A stretch of 64,000 nucleotides of DNA, from NCBI RefSeq assembly GCF_002240565.1, contig NZ_MZMO01000001.1, positions 3,180,134 to 3,244,133 on the forward strand, given 5' to 3'. The notes under the pieces were generated by a model. It was not told the origin of the DNA and ran no database searches. It saw only the letters and a list, made by a program, of their open reading frames with translations. The DNA comes from Clavibacter michiganensis subsp. insidiosus. GTDB lineage: Bacteria; Actinomycetota; Actinomycetes; Actinomycetales; Microbacteriaceae. Below are positions 15,101 through 50,393 of the stretch, piece by piece. Position 1 is the stretch's first letter, and each line of letters opens with the position of its first letter. The translations under genes were made by a program, and so were the position numbers.

Positions 15101-15168
15101 GGAGTGGTCCTTCACTTCATCGGGAGCGGGGCCGATCGACGCCGGCGGTGCCGGGTGGATCCGAGCCG

Positions 15169-26871: not shown

Positions 26872-26881
26872 GTCGGTGCGC

Positions 26882-34230: not shown

Positions 34231-35028
34231 TCAGAGGTCCCGGCTCGCCAGCACCACGTCGGAGTCGGAGGGCGTGATCTGCACCGTGCGGAGGCGCTCG
34301 ACGGAGATGCTCGAGGTGGCCGCGAGCTGCCGCGACTCGGTCTGGCCCGCGCCCCAGGTGGCGACGACCGTGCGGGAGCCGTCATCGGCGATCGCGACGA
34401 GGTCGTAGGCGCCCTGGCCGATGCCACCGCCCGCGTAGGCGCAGCTCCAGTCGAATCGGGTCCCGTACGGTTTGGCGGTGACGGCGAGCTGGGCGGTGAC
34501 GCCCTCGTCGAGCTCGGAGCGCATGCTGACGGCGTCGGCGGGGAGGCCCGTGGAGAGGTCCTCGTCCGCGGCGGGCGAGGAGGCGGCCGGGGACGGATCC
34601 GCGACGGGCGCGCTCACGCCGGCGCGGAGCGCGGACCCGAGACCGGCGCCGCCCACGAGGAGCACGACGGCGGCCGCCGCGAGGATCCACGCGCCCGCAC
34701 GACGGGACAGCCGCGGCCGACCGGGCACGGACGGCGTGCGGCGCCGACGGCGCGGGACGCGGTGCGCGGCGGCGGGGGCCGGTCGATCGCGCGGCTCGGG
34801 CGCGGGCTGCGGCACGGCGGGGGCCTCGGGCTCGTCCATGAGCGCGATCGCCTCCTCGACGGGCAGCATCCGCAGCACGCCGGGCAGGCCGGAGAGCTCG
34901 GCGAGGGAGCGCATGCACGCGTCGCAGCCCTCGAGGTGGGCCTCGAAGAGCGCGCGGTCGGTGGCGCTCAGGCTGCCGAGCACGTACGCGGCATCCCACT
35001 CGTGGATGTCGTCGGCGCGGTCGTTCAT
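34231..35028 (-). CDS. Anti-sigma factor (zinc-finger ZAS type, RskA-like)
   Basis: A 265-residue membrane anti-sigma factor. The ZAS motif is HLEGCDAC (H31, C35, C38), a cytoplasmic Pro/Ala/Arg-rich linker follows, one transmembrane helix sits near 120-142 (AWILAAAAVVLLVGGAGLG), and the outside domain ends in the RskA-like VERLRTVQITPSDSDVVLAS. It would hold the sigma factor until an envelope signal triggers release. Its ATG overlaps the sigma stop (ATGA). Confidence 0.9.
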   Translation of the reverse strand: MNDRADDIHEWDAAYVLGSLSATDRALFEAHLEGCDACMRSLAELSGLPGVLRMLPVEEAIALMDEPEAPAVPQPAPEPRDRPAPAAAHRVPRRRRRTPSVPGRPRLSRRAGAWILAAAAVVLLVGGAGLGSALRAGVSAPVADPSPAASSPAADEDLSTGLPADAVSMRSELDEGVTAQLAVTAKPYGTRFDWSCAYAGGGIGQGAYDLVAIADDGSRTVVATWGAGQTESRQLAATSSISVERLRTVQITPSDSDVVLASRDL

Positions 35029-35531
35029 CGGGTGACTCCTCGTTCCTGCAGGGCGAGCCGGAGCGCCTTGAGCGCGTAGTGGAGGCGGGACTTGATCGTG
35101 CCGGGCGGGACGCCCTCGCGTTCCGCCGTCTCCACGACCGTGCGGCCCAGGTGGTAGCAGCTGACGACCGCGCGACGGTGCTCGGCGGAGAGCGACGCGA
35201 GCGCCTCGGCGACGAGCAGGCGGTCGATGATGGCGTCGGACGCGTCGGCGACGGGATCCTCGGGCAGCACGTCCGTCGGCGTCTCGCGGCCGCGCCAGGC
35301 GCTGCGCCGGTCGTCGATGACGAGGTTGCGCACCACCGTGAACAGCCAGCGGCGGGCCGACTCGTCGTCCTCCGCGAGGATCGCGGGCGAGCGCCAGGCC
35401 CGCAGCAGCGCCTCCTGCACGACGTCCTCGGCGAGCGCCGGATCCCCCGTCAGCCGCAGCGCGTACCGCTGCAGCGCGGGTGCGTGCGCATCGTGCAGCG
35501 CCCGCATGCGGGCCGTGCTCTCCGTGGTCAT
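35025..35531 (-). CDS. ECF sigma factor
   Basis: A 168-residue RNA polymerase sigma factor with region 2 (LTGDPALAEDVVQEALLRAW, and WLFTVVRNLVIDDRR for -10 recognition) and region 4 (SLSAEHRRAVVSCYHLGRTV, then EREGVPPGTIKSRLHYALK). It pairs with the overlapping anti-sigma gene. It is divergent from the giant CE8 gene across 290 bases carrying a symmetric ECF-type promoter, so it may drive both itself and the pectin methylesterase. Confidence 0.93.
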   Translation of the reverse strand: MTTESTARMRALHDAHAPALQRYALRLTGDPALAEDVVQEALLRAWRSPAILAEDDESARRWLFTVVRNLVIDDRRSAWRGRETPTDVLPEDPVADASDAIIDRLLVAEALASLSAEHRRAVVSCYHLGRTVVETAEREGVPPGTIKSRLHYALKALRLALQERGVTR

Positions 35532-35608: not shown

Positions 35609-35634
35609 GGAACGAGCCGGGCCACCCCCCGTTC
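35609..35634. promoter_or_regulatory. Candidate symmetric ECF promoter between sigma and CE8 genes
   Basis: On the plus strand GGAAC (35609-35613), 16 bases, CGTT (35630-35633): the common ECF promoter layout. The dyad GAACG/CGTTC gives the same CGAAC-N16-CGTT layout on the minus strand toward the sigma gene. A second dyad, GCACA-CCGC-TGTGC, lies at 35676-35689. Confidence 0.45.
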
Positions 35635-35821
35635 GGGTCGAGCTTCTCGATAACGACCCGCTCGTCTTGCATGTCGCACACCGCTGTGCATGATTGACCT
35701 CGGCCCGCCTTTACCCGATCGCCGGCCGTCTCCCGCGCTCTCCCGATCCGAGCCGTGCTCCCACGTACCCGCGTGACTGCCCGGTCCCGGCGACGCGCCT
35801 ACCCGAAGGCACCGCACCCGC

Positions 35822-38800
35822 ATGTCGCGCTCCTCCTCCGAGCACCCGCTCGTCGTCCGTCCCTCCTCGAACCCCGACGCCGCGGCCCCCGACGCCGCGG
35901 CCCCCGCGACCGCGTCGTCGCGCGCGCGCCTGCGCGTGGCCGCCGCGCTCGTCGCCGGTGCCGTCATCGCCGGCACCGTGCTCCCCGCGGATCCGGCCCT
36001 CGCCGCCGACACCAGCGCGCCCTCGACGCCCGGCAGCCTCTCCGCCGAGTACTCGGGCGGCGTGGGCACGGTCGTCTCGTGGGGCAGGGTCTCCGCGTCC
36101 GACCTCGCGGGCTACCGCGTCTACCGGAGCGCGACCAAGACCGTGACGGCGACCGCCGCCTCGCGCGTCGCGACCACCACGTCGCTGACGGCCACGGACG
36201 CGGCCATCGCGGGCGGTTCCACCGGCTACTACGCCGTCACCGCCTACGACAGGACCGGCAACGAGTCGAAGCCGTCGAGCGTGAAGCAGGTGCAGGCGAA
36301 GGACACCCGCGCGCCCGACTCCCCCTCGAGCGTGACGGCCACCGCCTCCGCCGCGGGCGTCGCGCTCGACTGGGCCGACTCCGACGACGTCGACCTGAAG
36401 GGCTACGTCGTCGCGCGCTCCACCTCGTCGAGCGGCACGTACACGACGCTCACCGCCTCGCCGATCGCGACCTCCGCCTTCACCGACGCGCAGGCGCCGG
36501 GCGGGGTCACCTCCTCCTACCGGATCACCGCGGTCGACCTCACGGGCAACGCGTCGTCCGCGTCCACCGCCTCCGCGAAGCGCCCCGCGGGCGCGCCGAC
36601 GGCCCCCGCGGCGCCGGGCTCGCTCACGGCCAAGGCCTCCTCCTCCACCGGCGCCGTCACGCTGGCCTGGAGCGCCGCGACCGGCGCCACGGGCTACGTG
36701 GTCGCGCGCGGCGCGAGCGCCACCGGACCCTTCACGCGGGTGAGCGGATCCTCCCTCACGGCCACGACGTACACGGACGTGCCGCCCGCCGGCGCGACCG
36801 CGTACTACCAGGTGACCGCGGTCAACGCGGTCGGATCCTCGGCTCCGGCCACCGCGTCCGTCGCGATCCCCGCCGACACGACCGCCCCCAAGACGCCGTC
36901 CAGCCCGAAGGCCGTCGTGGTCGCGAACAGCGGCGGCATGACGATCTCGTGGAAGGCGAACACGGAGGCCGACCTCGCCGGCTACATCGTGTTCACGCGC
37001 GGATCCGACGAGGTCTACCGCCAGCTGCTCCCCGCCGCCGGCACGCCCGCGTACGCGACGACGACCTTCACGGACGCCGCCGCGACCGAGGGCACCACGA
37101 CCTACTACCGCATCCGCGCGGTCGACCGCGCGGGCAACGTCTCCGCGTACGTGGCCGTCACCGGCAACAACCCGAACGTGGCCCCGGCCGCGCCCTCCTC
37201 CCTCTCGGTGAAGCCGAGCGCGAAGGCCGGCCTCGACCTCGCCTGGACCGCGCCGAAGGACACCGACGTCGCGGGCTACACCGTCTCCCGCAGCACCACG
37301 AGCAACGGCACCTTCGTGCAGCTCGCCACCATCACGACCGCGGCCGCGGGATCGCCGCCCCGGTTCACCGACACGAGCGCGCCCCAGGGCGCCCCCGTCT
37401 TCTACCGCGTGACCGCGCGCGACCTCGTGGGCAACGTCTCCAAGGCCTCGAGCACGGTCTCCGGCACCTCCACCACCCCGCCCGTCGCGATCCCCGTCGA
37501 GTACACGGTGCTCACGGTCGGCGCCGGCAAGCAGTTCCCGACCATCGCCGCGGCCGTCGCGTCGATCCCGACGACCGCGCTCGCGAACCACCGCATCGAC
37601 ATCGACCCGGGCACCTACCGCGAGTCGTTCCGCCTCGACCGCTCCAACGTGATGCTGCACGGCCTCGGCACCGACCCGTCGCAGGTCGTCGTCTCCGCGG
37701 CGCAGGCCAGCGGGTCCACCGACCCCGACGAGCCCGAGGAGACCCTCGGCACGGCGGGCAGCGCGGTGATCCGCGTGACCGGCACCGACGTGACCCTCGA
37801 CAACCTGACCGTCGAGAACGCGTTCGACGAGAAGGCACACCCCGAGATCACGAGCGCGCAGGCCGTGGCGCTCCGCGTCGAGGGCGACCGGTTCGTCGCC
37901 CGCGCCGTCCGCCTCCTCGGCAACCAGGACACCCTGCTCGCCGACACCCCGAAGCCCACGACCCGCATCCGCCAGTACTACGTGGACAGCTACATCGAGG
38001 GCGACGTCGACTACCTGTTCGGCGCCGCGACCGCGGTGTTCGACCGCGTGACCTTCCGCTCGCTCGACCGCGGCAAGGCGGTCAACGGCTACCTCACGGC
38101 GGCCAGCACCGACGAGGGCAGCAAGTACGGCTTCCTCATCACGGGCAGCAAGATCGTGAGCGACGCGGCCGACGGCACCGTCAACCTCGGTCGCCCGTGG
38201 CACCCGAGCGCGGACCCGAAGGCCCTCGGCTCGGTCGTCATCAAGGACACGTGGCTCCCCTCCGCCATCGACACCGCGGCGCCGTGGGACGACATGTCGT
38301 CCACGAACTCCTCCGGCGTGAAGGTCCCCTTCGCCTGGCAGGACGCCCGCTTCGCCGAGTCGCAGAACATCGGCCCGGGCGCGACCGTGAACGCGAACCG
38401 CCCGCAGATGACCGCCAAGGACGCCGCCAACGCGACGCCGGAGAAGTACCTCGCGGGCAAGGACGGCTGGAACCCGATCGTCGCCGCGTCCGCCGCTGTG
38501 CCGGCCGTGCCCGCGAACGTGGTGGCCGCCGCCGACTCGAGCGTCGTGCACCTCACCTGGGCGGACGACACCTCGGCGAGCGTGACCGGCTGGACCGTCT
38601 ACCGCGCGGACGCCACGGGCGCCTTCACGGAGATCGCCTCCACCGACTCCCCCGCGTACAGCGACACCACCGTCGTGAACGGCGCGGCCTACCGCTACGC
38701 GATCACGGCCGACTCCCGCACGGGCGTCTCCTCCGCGCCGAGCGACGCCGTCGAGGTGACCGTGCAGGCGGCGGCCATCGTCGTCGACATCACGGTGGAT

Positions 38801-41800
38801 CCGCGGGCCGAGGCGAACGGCACCACCGTCTTCCCGACGCTCACCGCCGCCCTCGCCGCCGCGCCCGTCGGCACCGCGACCGACCCCACGGTCATCGCGC
38901 TCGCCGCCGGCCGCTACGCCGAGTACGCCACCATCGCGAAGCCGTACACGGTCCTCGTGGGCGCCACCGGCACCGCGCAGGACGTCGTGATCACCGGGAA
39001 CCGCGCCGCGGGCACGCCCACCGGCACGACCACCGACGGTGTCGCGGACACGTACGGCACCTCGGGCAGCGCGACCCTCGTGATCACGGGGAACGACGTC
39101 GCGCTCCGCGATCTCACGGTCGAGAACGCCTACGTCGAGGGCACCTACGCCAACGGCCAGGCCGTCGCGCTCCGCACCACGGGCGACCGGCTCGTCTACG
39201 ACGGCGTGCGCCTCCTCGGCAACCAGGACACGCTCTACGCCAACAGCCCGAGCGCCACGATCCCGGCGCGCTCGTACTTCCACGACAGCTGGATCGAGGG
39301 CGACGTCGACTTCGTCTTCGGCCGCGGCACCGTGGTCATCGACCGCAGCACGCTGAACGCGCTCGACCACGGCACCAGCCCGAACGGCGCGGTCACCGCG
39401 GCGAGCACGGACCGGAGCACCCCGTACGGCTTCCTCATCACGGGCAGCCGCATCATCGGATCCGCGCCCGACGGCTCGCAGAACCTCGGCCGCCCCTGGC
39501 AGCCGGGCAAGAAGCAGGCCGACGGCACCTCCATGGCCGACCCGGACGCGAACGCGCAGGTCGTCGTGCGCGACACCTGGCTCGGCCCGGTCGTCAGCAC
39601 GAAGGCGTGGACCGACATGGTCAACAGCGGCGTGACGACGAAGTGGCAGTCCGCGCGCTTCGCCGAGTACGCGAACAGCGGCCCGGGCGCGAGCACGGGC
39701 GCCGACCGCGCGCAGCTGACCGACGCGCAGGCGGCCGCGAGCACCTCGGCCGCGTACCTCGCCGGATCCGACGGCTGGAACCCCGTCGCCCCGCTCGCCG
39801 AGGACGCCGCCCCCGCGGCCGTCGCCGGCCTCGTCGCGACGTCCGCCGAGAAGCAGGTCGGCCTCTCCTGGTCGACCGGCGCGGAGAGCGACGTCGTGGG
39901 GTACCGCGTGTACCGCGCGACCGGATCCGACGCCCTCGTCGCCGACGCCGCGCACCTCGTGGCCGAGGTCGCGAAGCCCGTGCACCTCGACCGCGGCCTC
40001 GTGAACGGCACGGCCTACCGCTACCTCGTGGTCGCGGTCGACCGGGCCGGGAACGCCTCGGCCCCGTCCGCCGTCGTGACCGGCACGCCCGCGGTGACGC
40101 CGCTGGTCGCCGACATCACGGTCGCGGCCGACGGATCCGGCGACGTCACGACCCTGCAGGCGGCCCTCGCGGCCATCCCCGCCGGCACCGCGGCGGCGAA
40201 GAAGGTGATCCTGGTGGAGCCGGGCACCTACCGCGAGGTGGTGTCGTCGAGCAAGGCGAACATCGTCATCGCGGGCACCACCGGCGACCCGCGCGACGTC
40301 GTCATCACCTACGACAACGCGAACGGCACCGCCAAGGGCGCCACCACGTGCCCGGCCGTCGTGGCCGCCACGTGCGGCACCGCCGGCAGCGCGACCGCGA
40401 CCCTGTCCGGATCCGGCGTCGAGGTGCGCGACCTCACGATCGAGAACTCCTTCTCGAGCGCCGCGCACCCCGAGATCGGCCCGAACAACACGCAGGCCGT
40501 GGCGCTCCGCGCGCTCGGCGACCGCCAGACGTACCGCCACGTGCGCCTCCTCGGCGCGCAGGACACGCTGAACGCGGACGCCTCGGGCAACATCACCGCC
40601 GACGGCACGGGCTACCCGCGCCAGTACTACGTGGACAGCTACATCGCGGGCAACGTCGACTTCGTCTTCGGACGGGCCGCCGCGGTCTTCGACCGGGTCA
40701 CGATCCATGCCACCACCCGCAACGGCGGCACCGTCTTCGCCCCGAGCACCGCGTCGAAGAGCCGCGGGTACCTCGTGGTCGACAGCCGGATCACGGCGGA
40801 CAACGATGCGCCCACCATGGCGCTCGGACGTCCGTGGCGCGGCTGGGGCGACGGCACGCAGGCCGACACCTCGCGCGGCCAGGCCGTGATCCGGGACAGC
40901 TGGCTGGACGGCGGCATCGCCGTCGCACAGCCGTGGACCGACTTCGCGCCCAACGTGTGGACCGACGGACGCCTCGCCGAGCACCGGAACACCGGGCCCG
41001 CGGCGACGGTGAACGACAAGCGCCCGCAGCTGAGCGCATCCGACGCCCTCACCCAGACGCCGGCCGCCTACCTCGGCGGCACGGACGGCTGGGACCCGAC
41101 CGGCGCACCGGCCACGGACGCGGCTCCCGTCGCGCCCGCCGGCCTCGTCGCCGCACCGGGTGCGGCGCAGGCGTCGCTCGACTGGGCGGAGAGCACCGAG
41201 TCCGACGTGCGCGCCTACCGCGTGTACCGGGACGGGCAGCTCGTCGCCACGACGGCCACCTCCTCCGCCACGATCACCGGCCTCGACAACGGCACCGCGT
41301 ACGCCTTCACGGTGCGCGCGGTGGACGCGGCCGGTCAGGAGTCGCCCGCCTCGGCGAGCGCCTCGGCGACGCCGGCCCTCGAGGTCGACGCCACCGTGCA
41401 CGCGGACGGCAGCGGCGACTACCCGACGCTGCAGAAGGCCGTGGACGCGGCCCCCGGCACCGGCGAGTGGGTCGTGAGCGTGGATCCCGGCACCTACGCC
41501 GGCACCACGACGGTCGCCCGGTCGAACGTCGTGATCGTCGGATCGGGCGCGACCGCGGCCGACACCGTGCTCACGAACGGCACCACGACCGCGACGCTCG
41601 GCATCACCGGCTCGAGCGTCACCGTGCGGAACCTGTCGATCGCGAACACGACGGCCACCGGCAACGCCCCCGCGGTGTCGATGACCGGCGACAGGGTGCT
41701 CCTCGCGGGCACCGCGATCTCGAGCGCAGCGGGCCGCGCGGTCTTCGCCGACACCTCGACCTACACGGTCGCCGCGCGGCAGATGATCACCGGATCCACC

Positions 41801-44050
41801 ATCGCCGGCGGCGACGACGTGCTCCTCGGCCGCGGATCCCTCGTGGTCCACGACACGACGATCTCCGTCCGCGCCAACGGCACCGTCCTCACCCCGAGCA
41901 CGGCCGAGAACGCGAAGGGCTTCCTGCTCATCGGCAGCCGGGTCGACACGACCGGCGCGACGAACGTGCAGCTGGGGCGGCCGTACCGCGCCTGGGCCGA
42001 CACGTTCACCCCGCGCTCGGTCGGCCAGGCCGTCGTGCGCGACACGGCGCTCGGATCCGGCGTCAAGACGAGCCAGCCCTGGGGCATCGGCCCGTCGAGC
42101 GAGCCATGGACCCTCGGCCGCTTCGCCGAGCACGCCACCACGGGCGAGGGCGCGACGACGAACGCCAACCGGCCGCAGCTCTCCCCCGCGGAGTCGCTCG
42201 GCGCGACCGTGTCGCAGTGGCTCGGGGCGCCCACGTGGTACCCGGCGGTCGCGGATCCCGCGGCCCCGGCCGACGTGACCGCCCCCGGCGCGCCCGCCGA
42301 CCTGGTCGCCACGGCCGGCGACGCCTCGGCGTCGCTCGCCTGGACCGCGTCGACGGCCGCCGACATCGCCGGCCACCGCGTCTACCGCTCCACCACGAGC
42401 CCGGTCGCGATCACGCCCGCGAACCTCGTCGGGACGGTCGGCGTCGAGCCGTCCTTCACCGACCGGGGCCTCGCGAACCGCACGACGTACCACTACGCGG
42501 TCGTCGCGGTGGATGCGGTCGGCAACGCCTCGGCACCCGCCACGGCCGACGCCCGACCGGTCGACACGGCGCCGCCCGCGGCCCCCGTCGGCGTGGTCGC
42601 GACCGGCGCCGACGGCAAGGTCCTCCTCTCCTGGACCGCGAACGCCGACGCCGACATCGCCGGCTACGACGTGTACCGCGACGGCGAGAAGCTCACGGGC
42701 ACCCCGCTCGCGGCTCCCGCCTTCACCGACACGGGCCTCGTCAACGACACCGCGTACGCCTACACGGTGACCGCGATCGACGACACCCGCCTCGTGTCGG
42801 CGGCGTCCGCGGTCGCCACCGGCACCCCGCGCGCCGGCGACGCCGTGGCCCCGGCCATCCCCTCCGCCGTCACGACGGAGCTCGGCCGCGGATCCGTGAC
42901 CGTCCGCTGGGCCGCCGTGCCCGACACGGACGTGACCCGCTACGACGTGCTCCGCTCCACGGGCGACGGCGCGTCCGTCGTCGTCGGCACCGTCGGACCG
43001 GGCGAGACCCGCTGGACCGACACGACCGCCGCGATCGGCACCGCGTACTCCTACGCGGTCGTCGCGACCGACGGCTCCGCCAACTCCTCCGCGGCCTCCG
43101 CGGTGGCGAAGGCGACGCCGATCAAGGTGGACATCGTGGTGGCGGCCGACGGCTCGGGCGACGCCACGAGCCTCGCGCAGGTGCTCGGTTCCACCGACCC
43201 CGCCACCGGCTCGCTGCCCAACAACGCCGACTACACGACGCAGGGCTACCGGACGATCCTCGTCAAGCCCGGCACGTACGCGGGCGGCGTCGTCTCCGGC
43301 AACCGCTACGGCGTGAACGTGGTCGGCGCGACCGGCGACCCGGGCGACGTCGTGCTCACCGCGCCCGGCGGCGCCGTCGCGACGCTCACCGTCTCGGCCC
43401 CGCAGTGGACCCTCCGCGACGTGACCGTGCAGAGCGTCGCGACCGCGGTCGGCGCGCAGGCGACGGCCGTGCAGGTGAAGTCCGGCGACAGGCAGGTGCT
43501 CGACCACGTGCGCCTGCTCGGCGACAAGCAGACCCTGCTCGTCTCCACCGCCAACGTCACCACCTACAGCCGGGTCTACGTGACCGGCTCGTACCTCGAG
43601 GGCGGGTCCGACCTGATCCTCGGCCGCGCCGTCACGGTGGTCGACCGCAGCACGATCCACGTGCTCGACCGGCCGGGCGCCTCGCTCACCGACTCGTCCG
43701 TCGCGGCGGGCTCGGCGTACGGGTTCCTCATCCAGGACAGCCGCATCGTGACGGACGGCGCCGCCGGATCCATCGCGCTCGGCCGCCCGTACTCCACGAC
43801 CGGCAAGGCGCAGGTCGTGGTGCGGGGCACGGAGCTCGGCGAGGGGATCAACGCCGCCCGTCCGTGGAAGGACTGGGACGCGGTCACGCCGTGGACCGCG
43901 GGCCGCTTCTCCGAGCACCGCAACACGGGCCCGGGCGCCGCGATCGTGGATCCCGCCACCCGCCCGCAGCTGACGGACGCCGACGCGGCGACCTTCACGG
44001 CGCAGCGCTACCTCGCGGGCACGGACGGCTGGAACCCCACCGGCCGCTGA
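35822..44050 (+). CDS. Giant secreted multidomain pectin methylesterase (five CE8 domains, FN3 modules)
   Basis: A 2742-residue protein. A long signal peptide (core ALVAGAVIAGTVL, cleavage near 60) precedes five FN3 modules (about 62-555). CE8 domains follow at about 559-887, 987-1322, 1429-1760, 1855-2143 and 2435-2742, with single FN3 modules between them and three before the last. Domains 1-3 keep the acid/base Asp in the QDTL motif (D703, D1136, D1581), the nucleophile Asp in VDxxFG (D730, D1163, D1613) and the Arg of LGRPW (R791, R1224, R1670). Domain 4 has lost QDTL and domain 5 reads KQTL, while D1999 and D2597 remain. It should de-esterify pectin outside the cell. No sortase or anchor motif is seen. 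Confidence 0.92.
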   Translation: MSRSSSEHPLVVRPSSNPDAAAPDAAAPATASSRARLRVAAALVAGAVIAGTVLPADPALAADTSAPSTPGSLSAEYSGGVGTVVSWGRVSASDLAGYRVYRSATKTVTATAASRVATTTSLTATDAAIAGGSTGYYAVTAYDRTGNESKPSSVKQVQAKDTRAPDSPSSVTATASAAGVALDWADSDDVDLKGYVVARSTSSSGTYTTLTASPIATSAFTDAQAPGGVTSSYRITAVDLTGNASSASTASAKRPAGAPTAPAAPGSLTAKASSSTGAVTLAWSAATGATGYVVARGASATGPFTRVSGSSLTATTYTDVPPAGATAYYQVTAVNAVGSSAPATASVAIPADTTAPKTPSSPKAVVVANSGGMTISWKANTEADLAGYIVFTRGSDEVYRQLLPAAGTPAYATTTFTDAAATEGTTTYYRIRAVDRAGNVSAYVAVTGNNPNVAPAAPSSLSVKPSAKAGLDLAWTAPKDTDVAGYTVSRSTTSNGTFVQLATITTAAAGSPPRFTDTSAPQGAPVFYRVTARDLVGNVSKASSTVSGTSTTPPVAIPVEYTVLTVGAGKQFPTIAAAVASIPTTALANHRIDIDPGTYRESFRLDRSNVMLHGLGTDPSQVVVSAAQASGSTDPDEPEETLGTAGSAVIRVTGTDVTLDNLTVENAFDEKAHPEITSAQAVALRVEGDRFVARAVRLLGNQDTLLADTPKPTTRIRQYYVDSYIEGDVDYLFGAATAVFDRVTFRSLDRGKAVNGYLTAASTDEGSKYGFLITGSKIVSDAADGTVNLGRPWHPSADPKALGSVVIKDTWLPSAIDTAAPWDDMSSTNSSGVKVPFAWQDARFAESQNIGPGATVNANRPQMTAKDAANATPEKYLAGKDGWNPIVAASAAVPAVPANVVAAADSSVVHLTWADDTSASVTGWTVYRADATGAFTEIASTDSPAYSDTTVVNGAAYRYAITADSRTGVSSAPSDAVEVTVQAAAIVVDITVDPRAEANGTTVFPTLTAALAAAPVGTATDPTVIALAAGRYAEYATIAKPYTVLVGATGTAQDVVITGNRAAGTPTGTTTDGVADTYGTSGSATLVITGNDVALRDLTVENAYVEGTYANGQAVALRTTGDRLVYDGVRLLGNQDTLYANSPSATIPARSYFHDSWIEGDVDFVFGRGTVVIDRSTLNALDHGTSPNGAVTAASTDRSTPYGFLITGSRIIGSAPDGSQNLGRPWQPGKKQADGTSMADPDANAQVVVRDTWLGPVVSTKAWTDMVNSGVTTKWQSARFAEYANSGPGASTGADRAQLTDAQAAASTSAAYLAGSDGWNPVAPLAEDAAPAAVAGLVATSAEKQVGLSWSTGAESDVVGYRVYRATGSDALVADAAHLVAEVAKPVHLDRGLVNGTAYRYLVVAVDRAGNASAPSAVVTGTPAVTPLVADITVAADGSGDVTTLQAALAAIPAGTAAAKKVILVEPGTYREVVSSSKANIVIAGTTGDPRDVVITYDNANGTAKGATTCPAVVAATCGTAGSATATLSGSGVEVRDLTIENSFSSAAHPEIGPNNTQAVALRALGDRQTYRHVRLLGAQDTLNADASGNITADGTGYPRQYYVDSYIAGNVDFVFGRAAAVFDRVTIHATTRNGGTVFAPSTASKSRGYLVVDSRITADNDAPTMALGRPWRGWGDGTQADTSRGQAVIRDSWLDGGIAVAQPWTDFAPNVWTDGRLAEHRNTGPAATVNDKRPQLSASDALTQTPAAYLGGTDGWDPTGAPATDAAPVAPAGLVAAPGAAQASLDWAESTESDVRAYRVYRDGQLVATTATSSATITGLDNGTAYAFTVRAVDAAGQESPASASASATPALEVDATVHADGSGDYPTLQKAVDAAPGTGEWVVSVDPGTYAGTTTVARSNVVIVGSGATAADTVLTNGTTTATLGITGSSVTVRNLSIANTTATGNAPAVSMTGDRVLLAGTAISSAAGRAVFADTSTYTVAARQMITGSTIAGGDDVLLGRGSLVVHDTTISVRANGTVLTPSTAENAKGFLLIGSRVDTTGATNVQLGRPYRAWADTFTPRSVGQAVVRDTALGSGVKTSQPWGIGPSSEPWTLGRFAEHATTGEGATTNANRPQLSPAESLGATVSQWLGAPTWYPAVADPAAPADVTAPGAPADLVATAGDASASLAWTASTAADIAGHRVYRSTTSPVAITPANLVGTVGVEPSFTDRGLANRTTYHYAVVAVDAVGNASAPATADARPVDTAPPAAPVGVVATGADGKVLLSWTANADADIAGYDVYRDGEKLTGTPLAAPAFTDTGLVNDTAYAYTVTAIDDTRLVSAASAVATGTPRAGDAVAPAIPSAVTTELGRGSVTVRWAAVPDTDVTRYDVLRSTGDGASVVVGTVGPGETRWTDTTAAIGTAYSYAVVATDGSANSSAASAVAKATPIKVDIVVAADGSGDATSLAQVLGSTDPATGSLPNNADYTTQGYRTILVKPGTYAGGVVSGNRYGVNVVGATGDPGDVVLTAPGGAVATLTVSAPQWTLRDVTVQSVATAVGAQATAVQVKSGDRQVLDHVRLLGDKQTLLVSTANVTTYSRVYVTGSYLEGGSDLILGRAVTVVDRSTIHVLDRPGASLTDSSVAAGSAYGFLIQDSRIVTDGAAGSIALGRPYSTTGKAQVVVRGTELGEGINAARPWKDWDAVTPWTAGRFSEHRNTGPGAAIVDPATRPQLTDADAATFTAQRYLAGTDGWNPTGR

Positions 44051-44082
44051 TCCGCGGAGCGGGAGCGCCGCACGCACGACCG

Positions 44083-44116
44083 GGACCGCCCGCCGACGCT
44101 CGTCGGCGGGCGGTCC
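44083..44116 (+). terminator. Terminator after the giant CE8 gene
   Basis: A perfect 15-bp stem with a GCTC loop, 33 bases past the stop codon. Confidence 0.85.
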
Positions 44117-44263
44117 GCGCGTGGGGCGCCGCCGCCCGCGATCGCCGCGAACCTGGCAGGACCCTGAACCCGTGAACGTTCTCCGCGGCTGGTCCGTCGT
44201 CCTCCATGTCGGCGCGTCACATCGCGGCGGACGAAGACGCACCATCCGGATCAGGAGACCCCC

Positions 44264-44956
44264 ATGCAGAAGAAGACCAAGATCATCCTCGGCACGAGCG
44301 CGGCCGTGGTCGTCGTGCTCGGTGTCAGCGCCGCCGCGTTCGGCCCCGCGATCTACCGCGACGCGATCGTCGGCCCCCCTGCGGCCGCCCCGTCCGTCTC
44401 GGCCGACCCCGCCGACTCCACGCTCGACACGAGCGACCTGTCCGGCGAGTGGCAGATCGGCACCGGCAGCACCGCCGGCTACCGCGTCGCCGAGGTGCTC
44501 AACGGCACCGACGTGACCGTCGTCGGCAAGACCGAGGACGTGACCGGCGACGTGACGGTCGACGGATCCACCCTCACGGCCGCGACCGTGAAGGTCGACG
44601 TCGCGAGCATCGCCACCGACGCGGCACCCCGCGACGAGTACTTCCGCGGCACCGCCATGGAGGTCTCGAAGTACCCCGACGCGACCTTCACGCTCACGCA
44701 GCCGGTCGACGCGGCCGTGCCCGCGAGCGGCCAGGTCGCGACGGTCGACGCGACCGGCGAGCTCACGATGCACGGCGTGACGCAGACCGTCACGGTGCCG
44801 CTGCAGGCCGCGCTCTCGGGCGACGGCGTGCAGATCAGCGGATCCATCCCCGTCACCTTCTCCGACTACGGCGTCCAGGCCCCGAGCCTCGGCTTCGTGA
44901 GCGTCCAGGACAAGGGCACCGTCGAGTTCCTGGTGAAGGCGACGCCGACGAAGTAG
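44264..44956 (+). CDS. YceI family protein
   Basis: A 230-residue membrane-anchored or secreted protein: an N-terminal helix (about 7-28) followed by a linker and a YceI lipocalin-like barrel (SGEWQIGTGSTAGYRV at the start, ATVKVDVASIATDAAPRDEY, then TGELTMHGVTQTVTVPL). YceI barrels bind polyprenyl chains. GGAGA is close before the ATG. It ends in a very long hairpin shared with the converging SnoaL-like gene. Confidence 0.9.
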   Translation: MQKKTKIILGTSAAVVVVLGVSAAAFGPAIYRDAIVGPPAAAPSVSADPADSTLDTSDLSGEWQIGTGSTAGYRVAEVLNGTDVTVVGKTEDVTGDVTVDGSTLTAATVKVDVASIATDAAPRDEYFRGTAMEVSKYPDATFTLTQPVDAAVPASGQVATVDATGELTMHGVTQTVTVPLQAALSGDGVQISGSIPVTFSDYGVQAPSLGFVSVQDKGTVEFLVKATPTK

Positions 44957-44966
44957 GCGTCCGTCC

Positions 44967-45020
44967 CACGAGGGAGGGGAGGAGGAGCGCTTCGGGTCGC
45001 TCCTCCTCCCCTCCCTCGTG
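44967..45020. terminator. Bidirectional 23-bp hairpin terminator
   Basis: Perfectly paired 23-base arms (44967-44989, 44998-45020) with an 8-base loop between two convergent genes. Confidence 0.85.
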
Positions 45021-45043
45021 ACGGGGTCGTGCTCGGCGCTCGG

Positions 45044-45454
45044 TCAGCCCACGTCCGCCGTCGCGGCCGCGACGGGCGAGATGACCCGGCTCGCGATCAG
45101 CCAGCGCCCGTCGTGCAGCTCGACCCCGTCGTCGTACACGACGGCGTGGAGTCCGCCGTCGCGCATGATCATCAGCCCCTTGGACCGGACCGACGCGGTC
45201 GACGCCCCGGTCTCCGTGATGACGACGTTCGTCACGAAGTGCGACAGGGGAGCGACGCCGGCGGCGGACATCCTCTCCGCCGCGGCGCGCATGGCGTCGA
45301 TGCCCTGGAAGGCGCCCATCCCCGAGCGGGTCATGTCGTACGTCGCATCGGTGGTGAACACCTCCCCGAGCAGGTCCGGCCGGTCCTCGTCGACCACGTG
45401 GGCATGGCGGGCGAGCGTCTCGTTGATCTGCTGGCGATCGAGGGCGGTGAGCAT
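45044..45454 (-). CDS. SnoaL-like/NTF2-fold protein
   Basis: A 136-residue NTF2-like protein: ALDRQQINETLARHAHVVDE opens with the typical helix, FTTDATYDMT follows, and the fold ends in GRWLIASRVISPV. Members are small-molecule isomerases, dehydratases or ligand binders; substrate unknown. AAGGAGG sits at ideal distance before the ATG. It diverges from a TetR regulator with two dyads between them, so that regulator probably controls it. Confidence 0.82.
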   Translation of the reverse strand: MLTALDRQQINETLARHAHVVDEDRPDLLGEVFTTDATYDMTRSGMGAFQGIDAMRAAAERMSAAGVAPLSHFVTNVVITETGASTASVRSKGLMIMRDGGLHAVVYDDGVELHDGRWLIASRVISPVAAATADVG

Positions 45455-45470
45455 GGTTCCTCCTTGGGTT

Positions 45471-45506
45471 GGTACTGAGTACCGTAACAGACTCGGTACA
45501 TTACGG
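45471..45506. promoter_or_regulatory. TetR-type operators between the SnoaL-like and tetR genes
   Basis: Two dyads: GGTAC-TGA-GTACC (45471-45483) and CCGTAA-N13-TTACGG (45482-45506), in the 84-base divergent gap. Confidence 0.55.
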
Positions 45507-45526
45507 GACCCGGATCGCGCGGATGG

Positions 45527-45532
45527 TAGTGT
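45527..45532 (+). promoter_or_regulatory. -10 box of leaderless tetR-type gene
   Basis: TAGTGT six bases before the ATG at 45539. Confidence 0.5.
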
Positions 45533-45538
45533 CGGCGC

Positions 45539-46171
45539 ATGGCGGAGCGAACCTCGGAGACGGAGGCACCCTCCCTGTCGCTCATCGAGCGGAAGCAGCG
45601 CGCGGCACGGAACCGCATCATCGACGCCGCGGATGCCCTCTTCTCCGAGCGGGGCTTCGACCGCGTCTCCGTCACGGACATCGCGGAGCGCGCCGAGGTG
45701 GGGCGCACCACGTTCTTCCGGCACTTCGGGGACAAGACCGAGGTCGTCTTCGCCAAGGAGCAGGCGATGTTCGACGCGATCGCCGACGCGACATCCGGGG
45801 CGTGGTCTCCCCCGCAGCCCGTGGACGGCCTCGCCGGCGCCCTCCGCGCGCTCGAGCCCCTGGTGCTCCGGCTGTGCGAGCAGGCGACCGCCGACCTCGG
45901 CGCGTACGAGCGGCACACGCGCCTCCTCGGCGCGCACGACGAGCTGCGCGCACGCGAGGCGCTGAAGGACCAGCAGATCGCGACCGCCCTCGCACAGGCG
46001 CTCGTCGAGCACGGCGCTCCCCCGACGATCGCGACCACGGCGGCGCAGCTCGCCCTCGCCTGCTACTCCAGCGGCCGGATCCTCGCCGCCGCGCCCCGTG
46101 ACCTCGCCAGGAGCACACGCGCCGCGTTCCGCAGCACCCTGGCCATGGAGTCGACGTCCCGCGACGGGTGA
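45539..46171 (+). CDS. TetR family regulator
   Basis: A 210-residue repressor. The HTH spans about 22-68 (RIIDAADALFSERGFDRVSV, then EVGRTTFFRHFGDK), and the C-terminal helical domain binds an unknown ligand. It diverges from the SnoaL-like gene, with palindromic operators over the shared promoter region. Its mRNA is probably leaderless. Confidence 0.93.
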   Translation: MAERTSETEAPSLSLIERKQRAARNRIIDAADALFSERGFDRVSVTDIAERAEVGRTTFFRHFGDKTEVVFAKEQAMFDAIADATSGAWSPPQPVDGLAGALRALEPLVLRLCEQATADLGAYERHTRLLGAHDELRAREALKDQQIATALAQALVEHGAPPTIATTAAQLALACYSSGRILAAAPRDLARSTRAAFRSTLAMESTSRDG

Positions 46172-46371
46172 CCGTCCGCATCCGGGCGGATCGGGTGCCC
46201 CCTCCCCCGCAGCACGATCGCGCGTCCCGCGCTCCGTCTGTCCACGGGCGGCCGGGTCTGAGGACGGTCGGGAACGGTTCTCAGGACCGCGCCCCTGTGG
46301 TCATCGCGGTCCGGCGAGGGTCTTCCCGCCGAGACGCCGATCACTGCCCACGACAGAGAGATGACACGACC

Positions 46372-47481
46372 ATGTCCGTCACCCGCTCCGCCTTCCGCAC
46401 CCGCCCCGTCGCGGTCCCCGCCCTCGCGACGCTCGCCCTCCTCGGCGTCCCCACCGCCGCGCAGGCCGCCACCCCGGCCCACGCCGCCACCGCGGACAGC
46501 GCGTCCGCCCACCACCACGCGCCGTACCCCCTCAGCCAGCACACGATCCCCGCCACGGACGGCAGCGGCTTCGGCGACGCCACCCTCTACGCCCCGCAGG
46601 ACACGGGCAAGAAGACCCTCGGCGCGATCGTCGTCGCCCCGGGCCTCAAGGGCGACCAGTCCGTCCTGGGCTGGCTCGCCAAGGACCTCGCCGGCGAGGG
46701 CTCCATCGTGCTGGACATGGACACCCTCGGCGGCTACGACCTCCCGAACCAGCGCTCCTACGAGATGCTCGCCGCGGCCAAGTACCTCGCCACCGCGAGC
46801 CCGGTCAAGGACCAGGTGGAACCCGCGGACATCGGCGTCGTCGGCTACTCGCTCGCCGGCGGCGGCGCCCTGCAGGCCGCCGTGGAGCAGCACGGCCTCA
46901 AGGCCGCGGTCGCCCTCATGCCGGACGACTTCCCGGCCGACGCGACCGACCCGTACCACCCCACCCCGTCGCCGACGTACCCCACCATCACCACGCCCAC
47001 GCTGGTCATCACCGGCCAGGCCGACACGACCGCCCCGGCGTCGTTCATGGGCGAGCCCGCCGACGAGCCCATCCCCGCCTCCACCCCCAGGCAGTACCTG
47101 GAGCTCCGCGGCGCGGACCACTACGCGGCTCGGGCGAAGACCGACGGCACCGTCCGCGACGCGGTGACGAACTTCCTGAAGACCTACCTCGACGGCAACA
47201 GCGCCTACGAGAAGCACGTCCGCCCGGCCCAGCCGGTGTCGGCCGCGATCAGCGACTCCGCCAGCTCCTGCCCCCGCGAGATCCGACGCACGGCCTCCGG
47301 GCCCGATGAGAGCGGCGTGCGACCCCGGTCGCACGCCGCTCTCGGCGTCCCACCCGGATCGCCCGGCCGCCGCGCGACCGCGCCCGGCCGAGAGGGAGGA
47401 CGCGCCGCCGAGGGGATCCGGGGATCACGCCGGGAGCGCACCCCACAGCAGACCCGCGTACTCCGCGCGATCCTCGGGTGA
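46372..47481 (+). CDS. Secreted alpha/beta hydrolase (cutinase/PET-hydrolase-like), C-terminus probably shifted
   Basis: A 369-residue frame with a signal peptide (cleavage near AQAA at 33). The catalytic serine S160 is in GYSLAGG, with D218 in TGQADTT and H250 in ADHYAA. The order VVAPGLKGDQSVLG, then FLKTYLDGNSAYEKHVRP and a final SSCP fits actinobacterial cutinases and polyester hydrolases, whose last Cys forms a disulfide. Past SSCP the frame runs on through a perfect terminator hairpin. One more C in the C-run near 47271 would give a stop at 47307, just before it. Plant cutin or triglyceride is the likely substrate. Confidence 0.85.
   Translation: MSVTRSAFRTRPVAVPALATLALLGVPTAAQAATPAHAATADSASAHHHAPYPLSQHTIPATDGSGFGDATLYAPQDTGKKTLGAIVVAPGLKGDQSVLGWLAKDLAGEGSIVLDMDTLGGYDLPNQRSYEMLAAAKYLATASPVKDQVEPADIGVVGYSLAGGGALQAAVEQHGLKAAVALMPDDFPADATDPYHPTPSPTYPTITTPTLVITGQADTTAPASFMGEPADEPIPASTPRQYLELRGADHYAARAKTDGTVRDAVTNFLKTYLDGNSAYEKHVRPAQPVSAAISDSASSCPREIRRTASGPDESGVRPRSHAALGVPPGSPGRRATAPGREGGRAAEGIRGSRRERTPQQTRVLRAILG
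47308..47343 (+). terminator. Terminator lying inside the hydrolase reading frame
   Basis: A perfect 16-bp stem with a CCCG loop. It falls within the frame as read, which argues that the true stop lies just before it. Confidence 0.75.
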
Positions 47482-47536
47482 GGCGAAGCCGGGCAACGGG
47501 TCGGAGCCGTAGCGAACGGGCACGGCGCCTCGTCGC

Positions 47537-48163
47537 TCACCGGCCCGCCTCCGCCGGGAGCGCCGCCGCGAGCAGCCCGCGCGCGGCGTCGCGCGCGACC
47601 GCCATCGGCCGGGCGAAGGTGCCCATGCCGAGCGTCACGAGGCCGCCCTCGTAGATCAGCATCAGCGTGCGGGCGGTGGCGGCCGGATCCGGCACGGCGG
47701 CCTCGCGGCACAGGTCGCGCAGCAGGTCCAGCATCCACGCCTTCTGCCGCATGACCTCGGGGAGCACGTCGTGCCCGTCGTCCTCGTCGCCCAGGTCGCC
47801 CTCGCCGAGCTCCGCGCGCGCGTTGATCGCGCTGCAGCCCTTGGGCGTGTTCGCGTCGGCCCACGTGACGGCCGCGTCGAACACCGCCAGCACGCGGTCG
47901 ATCCCGGGCTCCGGCGTGCGCGCGAGCCGTGCCGCGAGGTGCTCGCGCCAGCGGGCGTCGCGGTGCTGCAGGTACGCCACCACCAGCTGCTCCTTGGAGC
48001 CGAAGCGGTCGTAGATCGTCTTCTTGGTGACGCCGGCGGCCGCGGCGATCGCGTCGACGCCGACCACGTGGATCCCCCGCGCGTAGAAGAGCTCGGACGC
48101 CGCGTCGAGCACGCGGCGGGCCCCGGGCGTGAGCGGGGCGAGGTCGGGGACGGCGGTGGGCAT
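47537..48163 (-). CDS. TetR family regulator
   Basis: A 208-residue repressor. The HTH is at about 15-65 (RVLDAASELFYARGIHVVGV, then GVTKKTIYDRFGSKEQL), and CSAINARAELG in the ligand domain is common in this TetR branch. It is 33 bases from the divergent EamA transporter gene, with inverted repeats that are likely its operators. A TAAATT box six bases before the ATG predicts a leaderless mRNA. Confidence 0.93.
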   Translation of the reverse strand: MPTAVPDLAPLTPGARRVLDAASELFYARGIHVVGVDAIAAAAGVTKKTIYDRFGSKEQLVVAYLQHRDARWREHLAARLARTPEPGIDRVLAVFDAAVTWADANTPKGCSAINARAELGEGDLGDEDDGHDVLPEVMRQKAWMLDLLRDLCREAAVPDPAATARTLMLIYEGGLVTLGMGTFARPMAVARDAARGLLAAALPAEAGR

Positions 48164-48169
48164 GCGTCG

Positions 48170-48218
48170 AATTTACCGGTCTGTATAGTCGAGCCCATGA
48201 CAAGTAGACAGATCGGTA
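48170..48218. promoter_or_regulatory. Divergent leaderless promoters and TetR operator
   Basis: -10 TAAATT for tetR (minus, 48170-48175) and -10 TATAGT for the transporter (plus, 48184-48189, seven bases before its ATG). An inverted repeat TACCGGTCTGT (48174-48184) / ACAGATCGGTA (48208-48218), one mismatch in 11, spans both starts. Confidence 0.6.
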
Positions 48219-49192
48219 TACCTCGTCCGCTCGTGACCGCCGTGGCCGCCGCCGGCTTCGTGCTCGCGTGGAGCTCGGGCTTCCTCATCGCGGCCGTCGG
48301 CACGGTCGAGGTGCCCGCGACGACGCTGCTCGTCTGGCGGTTCGCGCCGCTCGCCGTGGTGCTCGTGGCGGTGGTCGTCGCGACCGGCGCGGCGCGCGGG
48401 ATCGCGCCGCGGACGCTCGGGCGGCAGGCGCTCATCGGCGCGTGCGCGCAGCTCGGCTACTGCGCCTTCGTGTACGCGGCGATCGGCGCGGGCATCGCGA
48501 CCGGCACGACGGCGCTCATCGACGCGGTGCAGCCGCTCGTCGTCGCGACGCTCGTCGGGCCGCTGCTCGGGCTGCGCGTGCGCGGCGCGCAGTGGGCCGG
48601 GCTCGCCCTCGGCGCCGTCGGCGTGGTGCTCGTGGTGCGGTCGCAGGCGGGGGCGGCGGATGCGGATCCCGTCGCGTACCTGCTGCCCGCGGCGGCGATG
48701 GCGTGCCTGGTCGCGGGGACGTTCCTCGAGCGCCGGTCGTCCGGCCGTCCGCCCGTGCTCGTGACGCTGACCGTGCACGTCGTCGTCACGACGGTCGCGC
48801 TCGTGGTGGCCGCCGTCGCGACCGGCACGCTGGCGCCGCCCGCGGATCCGGCGTTCTGGATCACCACCGCCGTCGCAGCCCTCGTGCCGACCCTGGGCGC
48901 GTACGGGCTGTACTGGTGGCTGCTCGAGCGCGTCGGGATCACGGCGCTCAACGCGCTGCTGTTCCTCGTGGCGCCGACGACCGCGGCGGCGGGCGCGCTG
49001 CTGCTCGGGGAGCGCATCACGGCGGTGACGCTCGCGGGGTTCGTGCTGTGCGGCGCGGGCGTGGCGGTGGTGCTGGCGACGGAGGCGCGGCGGGCAGCGG
49101 CACGCGCCGGGGACGCGGCGGACACCGGGCCCGCCGCCGACCACTCCAGTCCGGGTGCGGATCGCCGCGAGCCCGCCGCCCGGGCCGCGTGA
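48197..49192 (+). CDS. EamA/DMT family transporter
   Basis: A 331-residue permease with ten predicted helices in two EamA repeats (FVLAWSSGFLIAAVG opens the first; GAYGLYWWLLERVGITALNA lies in the second). Such proteins export amino acids or drug-like metabolites. It is under the divergent TetR regulator. The C-terminal 30 residues are a hydrophilic Ala/Asp-rich tail. Confidence 0.92.
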   Translation: MTSRQIGIPRPLVTAVAAAGFVLAWSSGFLIAAVGTVEVPATTLLVWRFAPLAVVLVAVVVATGAARGIAPRTLGRQALIGACAQLGYCAFVYAAIGAGIATGTTALIDAVQPLVVATLVGPLLGLRVRGAQWAGLALGAVGVVLVVRSQAGAADADPVAYLLPAAAMACLVAGTFLERRSSGRPPVLVTLTVHVVVTTVALVVAAVATGTLAPPADPAFWITTAVAALVPTLGAYGLYWWLLERVGITALNALLFLVAPTTAAAGALLLGERITAVTLAGFVLCGAGVAVVLATEARRAAARAGDAADTGPAADHSSPGADRREPAARAA

Positions 49193-49197
49193 CGCCC

Positions 49198-49203
49198 TAG
49201 GGT
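49198..49203 (+). promoter_or_regulatory. -10 box of leaderless lipoprotein gene
   Basis: TAGGGT six bases before the ATG at 49210, just past the transporter stop. Confidence 0.5.
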
Positions 49204-49209
49204 CCGGAC

Positions 49210-50249: not shown

Positions 50250-50255
50250 CCCGCG

Positions 50256-50261
50256 ATCCTA
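50256..50261 (-). promoter_or_regulatory. -10 box of leaderless kinase-like gene
   Basis: TAGGAT on the minus strand six bases before the ATG at 50249. Confidence 0.5.
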
Positions 50262-50393
50262 GGGCGCGCGGGCGGGGCGCCGTCGGGATCCGCCCCGCCC
50301 TCCCGCGCGGGACGACCCGCTCGCGAGCGCGACGCCGCCGGGTACCGTGGTGCCGCCCGCGACGAACCGACACCCGACCGGAAGGACCCGATC

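What the first reader, a model, noticed from the sequence alone, without database searches (positions are those of the whole stretch)
35822..44050. One secreted protein with five CE8 domains, two of them apparently dead
Pectin methylesterases usually have one catalytic domain. Here a 2742-residue protein carries five CE8 domains and about eleven FN3 modules. Domains 1-3 keep both catalytic aspartates (D703/D730, D1136/D1163, D1581/D1613) and the LGRP arginine. Domain 4 has lost the QDTL motif and domain 5 reads KQTL with Gln2570 where the acid/base Asp should be, although the VDxxFG Asp remains in both (D1999, D2597). The degenerate domains may bind pectin rather than cut it, turning the protein into a processive or multivalent de-esterifier. 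The domain call is family knowledge; the role of domains 4 and 5 is inference.
Basis: partly seen in the sequence, partly recalled or inferred. Interest (0 to 1): 0.75.

Follow-up and report, generated by a model that had tools for sequence, protein, structure and literature searches.

The report
Five-module pectin esterase, two modules dead
This gene of a plant-associated bacterium makes one huge secreted protein with five copies of a pectin-demethylating module, three that look working and two that lost a key catalytic acid, and the same three-working-two-dead layout recurs in relatives from several bacterial families, which suggests that the dead copies are kept for a reason.

Summary
A 2742-aa protein (35822-44050 +) has five Pectinesterase (PF01095) domains and eleven FN3 modules. 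D1-D3 keep the catalytic residues. D4 has Arg1972 and D5 Gln2570 where the acid/base Asp belongs.

The losses are old and fixed. In 30 of 30 five-domain homologues found (15 after removing rows over 80% alike), D1-D3 are intact, D4 has Arg in 30, and D5 never has Asp. D5-type domains also occur in other architectures (41, none with Asp); the 14 put in the careful tree form one clade (100/100). D4 and D5 are constrained and predicted as PemA-like beta-helices.

'Dead domains bind pectin' is neither shown nor excluded: both lost the -2 subsite loop, and groove columns, conserved in D1-D3, are not preferentially conserved in D4/D5. D5 keeps the nucleophile Asp and groove Arg, so a changed binding role is plausible there, less so for D4. 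'Processive' has no support.

Best reading: a secreted multivalent pectin methylesterase with two conserved pseudoenzyme modules, accessory in Clavibacter (5 of 18 genomes). New variant of a known kind.

The parts
35822..44050 (+). gene of the 2742-aa five-CE8 protein (277 kDa, pI 4.9)
35822..36007 (+). long N-terminus and signal peptide ending near ...LPADPALA
   Evidence: read by eye from the sequence; no signal-peptide program was run
36005..37489 (+). five N-terminal FN3 modules (residues 62-556)
   Evidence: Pfam fn3 matches three of the five, below its cut-off
37490..38518 (+). D1, CE8 with full catalytic set (Q680 Q702 D703 D730 R791 W793)
38498..38776 (+). FN3 between D1 and D2 (residues 893-985; overlaps the end of the D1 match)
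   Evidence: no Pfam hit
38789..39802 (+). D2, CE8 with full catalytic set (D1136 D1163 R1224)
39803..40090 (+). FN3 between D2 and D3
40103..41119 (+). D3, CE8 with full catalytic set (D1581 D1613 R1670)
41108..41374 (+). FN3 between D3 and D4
41378..42265 (+). D4, degenerate CE8: acid/base Asp is Arg1972 (codon 41735-41737), nucleophile D1999 and R2053 kept, Trp is Tyr2055, GTAGS loop deleted
42281..43114 (+). three FN3 modules between D4 and D5
43121..44047 (+). D5, degenerate CE8: KQTL, acid/base Asp is Gln2570 (codon 43529-43531), D2597 and R2655 kept, Trp is Tyr, GTAGS loop shortened away
35025..35531 (-). divergent sigma-70-family (ECF-type) sigma factor; left border gene, in 18 of 18 Clavibacter genomes
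34231..35028 (-). zinc-finger (zf-HC2) anti-sigma-type protein beside it
44264..44956 (+). YceI-domain protein; right border gene, in 18 of 18 Clavibacter genomes
35613..44145 (.). approximate limits of the stretch that is absent as a block at the empty sites read (4 genomes)

Best explanation
It is a secreted pectin methylesterase in which three catalytic CE8 domains (D1-D3) and two ancient, conserved, catalytically dead CE8 modules (D4, D5) are strung on FN3 spacers. D1-D3 remove methyl groups from homogalacturonan at several points at once. D4 and D5 no longer hydrolyse methyl esters; they are kept as non-catalytic modules that most likely help to hold the enzyme on its pectic substrate or product (D5 more likely than D4) or carry the protein's shape. 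SHOWN by sequence: the architecture, the residue losses, their fixation in 30 of 30 homologues, purifying selection, PME fold by prediction. INFERRED: secretion, activity of D1-D3, inactivity of D4/D5, and any binding role. The gene is an accessory block at a fixed chromosomal site in Clavibacter.
Against: No biochemistry exists for this protein in what I read. The binding role rests on nothing measured: the -2 subsite loop is gone from D4 and D5, D4 has also lost the nucleophile Asp in 11 of 30 and the groove Arg in 10 of 30, and groove columns are not preferentially conserved in either. Three further relatives (P0032-P0034) have D1-D4 but no D5 match; whether they are cut short or truly lack D5 was not checked. 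D5 has a fixed Asp two residues before the lost one (30 of 30), so residual or altered activity is not strictly excluded. The own genome shows one GH28 and no PF00544; PF03211 gave no hit, but no control rang, so that absence is uninformative.
Confidence: 0.6

Rival explanations
1. D4 and D5 are structural only: they keep the beta-helix fold as rigid spacers or folding partners and bind nothing (overlaps the last clause of the best explanation).
For: Groove columns are not preferentially conserved in D4 (P 0.81) or D5 (P 0.37); D4 has lost groove residues piecemeal and is the most diverged domain (mean pairwise identity 0.60 against 0.70-0.72 in D1-D3).
Against: FN3 modules already serve as spacers; Arg at the old acid site in 30 of 30 D4, and D199 plus R267 in 41 of 41 D5-type domains, are more than a spacer needs.
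Confidence: 0.25
2. D5 (perhaps D4) is a CE8-derived binding module for de-esterified galacturonan: removing the negative acid and adding Lys/Gln/Arg turns the active site into a carboxylate pocket (a sharper form of the best explanation).
For: Acid replaced by Gln, Lys or Arg (one Thr) with nucleophile Asp and groove Arg kept in 41 of 41 D5-type domains; in PemA the two Asp make the single negative patch in a positive groove (PMC3913658, passages); an unrelated positively charged module binds polygalacturonate electrostatically (PMC9843283, abstract).
Against: Loop with the -2 subsite deleted; Phe202, Val198 and Met306 places changed. Beetle GH28 pseudoenzymes, the nearest studied parallel that I read, lost pectin binding (PMC8213348, passages).
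Confidence: 0.3
3. D5 is still an esterase with a shifted acid/base (Asp2568, two residues upstream) or another substrate, as may hold for E. coli YbhC.
For: Asp2568 is fixed in D5 (30 of 30; Asn in 60 and Val in 17 of 90 D1-D3); YbhC, the closest solved sequence to D5, aligns Asn at the acid place and keeps the other Asp.
Against: Four of 41 D5-type domains (P0042-P0045, the Geodermatophilus/Blastococcus/Modestobacter group) have Asn there while keeping KQTL; oxyanion-hole Gln177 is lost in 29 of 30 D5.
Confidence: 0.1
4. D4/D5 are decoys that soak up plant inhibitors of pectin methylesterase.
For: A leaf-beetle pectinase pseudoenzyme was pulled down with plant PGIP-like proteins (PMC8213348, passages); D4 and D5 have the PME fold.
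Against: In that study the pseudoenzyme was not bound by the classical inhibitors. Bacterial PMEs may already avoid plant inhibitors by long loops (PMC3913658, passages), so a decoy is hardly needed. Several carriers are not known plant pathogens (recalled).
Confidence: 0.05
5. Artefact of assembly or gene decay in one strain.
For: The contig ends overlap untrimmed, giving a false sixth hit, and one relative, G034, has an interrupted copy.
Against: Same architecture and same losses in 30 of 30 five-domain proteins; 92-93% identity to Clavibacter homologues over the full length.
Confidence: 0.01

Closest known systems
PemA of Dickeya dadantii (Erwinia chrysanthemi), CE8; 1QJV, 2NSP, 2NTB
   Same: Fold and, in D1-D3, all six catalytic-site residues; best PDB hit of the whole protein and best structural match of the D4 and D5 models.
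   Different: PemA is one domain; here five, two without acid/base Asp and -2 loop.
PmeC5 of Butyrivibrio fibrisolvens (PMC12109409; abstract, section 3 part 1 of 2 and section 9 read)
   Same: Large secreted multidomain pectinesterase (2089 aa) with proposed binding modules.
   Different: One CE8 domain plus PL9 and adhesin-like parts; no repeated or degenerate CE8 is described in what I read.
E. coli YbhC, 3GRH
   Same: CE8 fold with Asn in place of the acid/base Asp in the alignment and the other Asp kept; closest solved sequence to both D4 and D5.
   Different: Single domain with Gln kept at 177; not tandem. Its function is as named in the PDB; I did not read its paper.
GH28 polygalacturonase pseudoenzymes of leaf beetles (PMC8213348, passages)
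   Same: Pectin enzymes with lost catalytic residues, functionally linked to pectin digestion.
   Different: Separate proteins, another family, an animal host, and no longer pectin-binding.
Clavibacter nebraskensis CMN_00249/CMN_00250 (PMC11748494, passages)
   Same: Two 'pectinesterase' genes at one locus, reported under selection in maize; most likely the same gene split by a stop, as in G034 (inference).
   Different: Annotated as two genes; domain makeup and dead domains are not discussed in the passages that I saw.

Membership tests
CE8 / PF01095 Pectinesterase, D1-D3 | profile match above the curated cut-off | tested here: met
   100.5, 109.3, 104.9 bits; cut-off 27
CE8 / PF01095 Pectinesterase, D1-D3 | two catalytic Asp, Arg, oxyanion Gln, Trp | tested here: met
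   30 of 30 homologues for each of D1, D2, D3
CE8 / PF01095 Pectinesterase, D1-D3 | pectin methylesterase activity | not testable with these tools
   needs purified protein
CE8 / PF01095, D4 and D5 as family members by descent | profile match and right-handed parallel beta-helix fold | tested here: met
active pectin methylesterase (EC 3.1.1.11), D4 and D5 | acid/base Asp and oxyanion Gln | tested here: not met
   D178: Arg 30 of 30 in D4; Gln, Lys or Arg 30 of 30 in D5. Q177: lost in 30 of 30 D4 and 29 of 30 D5. A possible shifted Asp at -2 in D5 remains
PemA-type -1/-2 subsites, D4 and D5 | Thr109, Ala110, Trp269, Phe202 in place | tested here: not met
   loop 16-25 residues in D1-D3, 1-4 in D4/D5 (10 of 30 D5 still align a Thr of the short loop at the Thr109 column); Trp is Tyr in 59 of 60 with one gap, Phe kept in 3 of 60
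carbohydrate-binding module | non-catalytic domain with measured carbohydrate binding | not testable with these tools
   only indirect evidence, mixed
PRK10531 / acyl-CoA thioester hydrolase (NF007822 equivalog) | score over the cut-off as one full-length match | tested here: inconclusive
   564 bits over 436, but over 7 stretches of a repeated protein; best stretch covers 70-386 of 430

The most novel reading that the evidence does not exclude
The D5-type domain is a distinct, ancient non-catalytic branch of CE8 in Actinomycetota that turned a methylesterase active site into a recognition site for its own product, de-esterified galacturonan. It is reused at different places in at least three architectures (last of five, last of three, first of three or four), so that the protein senses or grips the stretches it has already demethylated.
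Probability: 0.25. Interest if true: 0.65.

Novelty: new variant of a known kind. Interest (0 to 1): 0.5.

Why it matters
Pectin methylesterase is usually pictured as one catalytic domain. Here a three-live-two-dead tandem is fixed over several actinobacterial groups, an unusual natural series for asking what a dead copy does for its live neighbours in one chain. It also warns annotators: 'pectinesterase family protein' or 'acyl-CoA thioesterase' hides two non-catalytic domains, and in one Clavibacter the gene is split by a stop and probably counted as two enzymes. I found no description of repeated or dead CE8 domains of this kind in my ten searches of the open-licence PMC library. That is a weak absence: lists were capped (20 of 29 papers shown, 10 of 98), I looked into only a few papers, and subscription papers are not held.

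Tried and rejected
Sixth PF01095 hit in the genome (C1:1040-1459): rejected as a separate gene. C1:1-8000 matches window 42547-50582 at 99.4% with 44 gap bases, an untrimmed overlap of the contig's two ends.

Stand-alone D5 or D4 relatives: a D5-only search gave 99 hits (7994 candidates scored), D4-only 3 weak ones. Their 102 proteins hold 117 domain matches: 86 have the full active set, one more all but Gln153, 12 have a D5-type site (Gln or Lys for Asp), a thirteenth (P0133) breaks off there, one (P0218) has His, the rest do not cover the site. These thirteen D5-type proteins lie on contigs of 1.0-9.7 kb and may be fragments of long proteins; not checked further.

One origin of both losses: a tree with D4 and D5-type together is not rejected (p-AU 0.47), so one or two losses cannot be told apart. 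The branches that order D1-D5 among themselves are weak. A further loss (Asp to Asn) is in the fourth domain of P0040 and P0041.

Active-site cleft geometry of D4/D5: the tools gave no coordinates, so pocket shape and charge were not measured. The alignments given to AlphaFold held active-domain rows (45 and 42 rows in all), which may pull the models toward the PME fold.

Groove-conservation test: columns were chosen from PemA contacts in PMC10530356 (table passage); a new binding site elsewhere on D4/D5 would be missed, and the 30 rows are related.

PemA-paper look-up failed (not held); subsite data come from passages of PMC3913658 and PMC10530356. PemA precursor numbering is recalled and fits the alignment (+24) and the residues named.

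Phrase search for repeated CE8 (7 papers): passages of two (PMC4769552, PMC7807696) speak of CE8 modules or genes in gene clusters, not of tandem domains; five were seen as listing only.

Full report
CHECK. The window's + strand holds an uninterrupted ORF at 35822-44050, 2742 aa, 277 kDa, with an N-terminal hydrophobic stretch of signal-peptide type and no sorting motif seen at the C-terminus (both by eye). Pfam finds five Pectinesterase stretches, and each domain passes alone. The eleven FN3 modules stand as 5 + 1 + 1 + 1 + 3 around D1-D5; 11 of 11 are supported by leave-one-out profiles, 8 of 11 by Pfam fn3, three of these below its cut-off. The domains are 37-49% identical to each other.

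HOST. Homologues at 92-93% are from Clavibacter (C. zhangzhiyongii; C. lycopersici); the window lies at the end of a 3.24-Mb contig of a 3.39-Mb genome. The genus holds crop pathogens, so this report describes only.

DEAD DOMAINS ARE OLD AND FIXED. A homology search with residues 560-2742 gave 128 proteins, of which 120 were listed (only the 7994 candidates sharing most words were scored). With the window's own protein that makes 121; a CE8 profile built from D1-D5 found 30 with five CE8 domains (the window's included), 5 with four, 9 with three, 5 with two and 2 with one; the other 70 had no match. The 30 are not independent: 15 remain if rows over 80% alike in the CE8 columns are dropped. 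In the 30, D1-D3 have Q153, Q177, D178, D199, R267 and W269 (PemA numbering) without exception. D4: D178 is Arg in 30 of 30, W269 Tyr in 30 of 30, D199 kept in 19, R267 kept in 20. D5: D178 is Gln 22, Lys 5, Arg 3; D199 and R267 kept in 30; W269 Tyr in 29 and a gap in 1. Three of the four-domain proteins (P0032-P0034) end after D4; whether they are cut short was not checked.

ORIGIN. In a 97-domain quick tree D1, D2, D3 and D4 are each one clade, and 18 D5-type domains form one at SH-aLRT 97. In a 67-domain careful tree the 14 D5-type domains included, with Kineococcus (third of three), the Geodermatophilus/Modestobacter group (first of three) and two four-domain proteins (first of four), are one clade at 100/100, and the 8 D4 likewise. 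Counting also the D5 and D5-type domains that were not put in a tree (assigned by place and motif), there are 41: none has the Asp (Gln 32, Lys 5, Arg 3, Thr 1), while D199 and R267 are present in all 41. Whether D4 and D5 lost it once or twice cannot be told (p-AU 0.47). The 13 single-domain PMEs in the quick tree stand apart from all multi-CE8 domains.

SELECTION. Against C. lycopersici (L008) dN/dS is 0.19, 0.25, 0.10, 0.29, 0.21 for D1-D5 at dS 0.15-0.19; N-terminal FN3 0.25, FN3 between D4 and D5 0.29. Against three more distant genera (L009-L011) the D1-D5 values are 0.19-0.64, with D4 highest in two of three; there dS is larger and less reliable. Mean pairwise identity over the 30: 0.70, 0.72, 0.70, 0.60, 0.67. 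D4 evolves fastest, but all five are constrained.

FOLD AND GROOVE. AlphaFold2 gives confident beta-helices for D5 and D4 (pLDDT 93.3 and 93.7), and the best solved matches are PemA and plant PME. But the groove is altered. The loop with Thr109/Ala110, whose backbone makes the -2 subsite in PemA (PMC3913658, passages), spans 16-25 residues in D1-D3 and 1-4 in D4/D5, in all 30. Of the PemA contact residues (table passage of PMC10530356), D5 keeps mainly D199, R267 and Gln153 (25 of 30); D4 keeps D199 and R267 in part. Thirteen groove columns are more conserved than random columns in D1-D3 (P 0.007, 0.004, 0.020), not in D4 (0.81) or D5 (0.37); for seven pocket columns P is below 0.001 in D1-D3, 0.35 in D4 and 0.17 in D5. 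This counts against an unchanged pectin groove in the dead domains, though not against a new one. The net charge of D4 and D5 is less negative than that of D1-D3 (means -3.3 and -3.3 against -11.9, -12.3, -7.9), in the direction that would favour an anionic polymer.

DISTRIBUTION. PF01095 is in 16 of 299 genomes of the window's family (drawn from a larger group); 11 of the 16 have five or more hits (the window's own six include the artefact), a twelfth four in a 2828-codon frame. In the genus 5 of 18 genomes carry it, all with five or more hits. The sigma-factor and YceI genes that border it are in 18 of 18. The gap between them is about 8.6-8.7 kb in the 5 carriers, about 190 bases in 9, and 0.7-2.3 kb in 4. 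Of the 13 non-carriers I read 8 (4 of the 9 short, all 4 intermediate). In the short ones the flanks match the window up to about 35613 and from about 44145. The intermediate ones gave no convincing protein match to the PME (best tblastn E 0.18), but three of the four have one short blastn match of 45-55 bases at 75-82% inside the gene (E 6e-4 to 3e-6), so a decayed remnant is not excluded. Mobile-element signatures were not looked for beyond aligning the breakpoints. The neighbours are shared with C. lycopersici but not with L009-L011.

BROKEN RELATIVE. In G034 (3,063,596-base contig) the gene is split by one in-frame stop inside D3 into open frames of 1668 and 1015 codons. This fits C. nebraskensis CMN_00249/CMN_00250, two pectinesterases at one locus under selection in maize, alleles not correlated with virulence (PMC11748494, passages); the identity of G034 with that species is inference. 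Intact copies exist in other species.

MECHANISM. D1-D3 should demethylate homogalacturonan by the usual two-Asp CE8 mechanism (family knowledge). Three such sites on a chain with FN3 spacers give a multivalent enzyme; processivity is not supported by anything here. D4 and D5 should not catalyse this reaction: they lack the acid/base in all 30, D4 the oxyanion Gln in 30 and D5 in 29 of 30. I hold a non-catalytic binding or positioning role most likely for D5 and undecided for D4. The counter-example I read, beetle GH28 pseudoenzymes, no longer bind pectin (PMC8213348, passages). E. coli YbhC is a natural solved CE8-fold protein that also lacks the acid/base Asp in the alignment.

NOVELTY. CE8 proteins with extra modules are known (PmeC5, PMC12109409), and CE8-fold proteins without the acid exist. 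A conserved tandem with live and dead copies was not found in the ten paper searches listed under Why it matters, whose lists were partly capped, so I file it as a new variant of a known kind.

Noticed in passing
L007 (G000:C1:1-8000) against window 42547-50582: The assembly's contig start repeats the window at 99.4% with 44 gap bases: an untrimmed, error-rich overlap of a circular chromosome, which makes a false sixth pectinesterase hit and frameshifted copies of neighbouring genes.
   Followed up: yes
G034:C1:228400-237700 (L033): A relative's copy is interrupted by one in-frame stop inside D3; probably what the C. nebraskensis literature counts as two pectinesterases.
   Followed up: partly
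window 35613-44145 and L025-L032: The PME sits in a fixed site between a sigma-factor gene and a YceI gene; 9 of 18 Clavibacter genomes have about 190 bases there, 4 have 0.7-2.3 kb of other DNA, in two of them (L025, L026) with an HTH-type regulator frame (by eye).
   Followed up: partly
P0030, P0031, P0040-P0045: Relatives carry on the CE8 chain a PF00657 domain (GDSL-type esterase, name recalled) or, in P0031, a PF22842 (Pel9A-like) domain, per precomputed Pfam.
   Followed up: no
P0040 and P0041, fourth CE8 domain: Another loss of the acid/base Asp (to Asn), outside the D5-type clade and with the groove Trp kept.
   Followed up: partly
P0032, P0033, P0034: Relatives with D1-D4 and no D5 match: cut short, or D5 truly absent.
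   Followed up: no
window 46372-47481 +: PET-hydrolase-like protein, PF12740, with a signal-peptide-like start (by eye), close to the pectinesterase.
   Followed up: no
window 22587-28174 -: Extracellular solute-binding protein and GH3 glycosidase with two membrane-protein frames between them (by eye); an alpha-L-arabinofuranosidase-type gene lies at 13559-15115.
   Followed up: no
NCBIfam NF007822 on P0001: The repeated protein exceeds the equivalog cut-off of an acyl-CoA thioester hydrolase over seven stretches; a likely source of the name 'pectin methylesterase-like acyl-CoA thioesterase' on relatives.
   Followed up: partly
E. coli YbhC (3grh): YbhC aligns Asn at the CE8 acid/base position, so it too lacks that Asp.
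   Followed up: no
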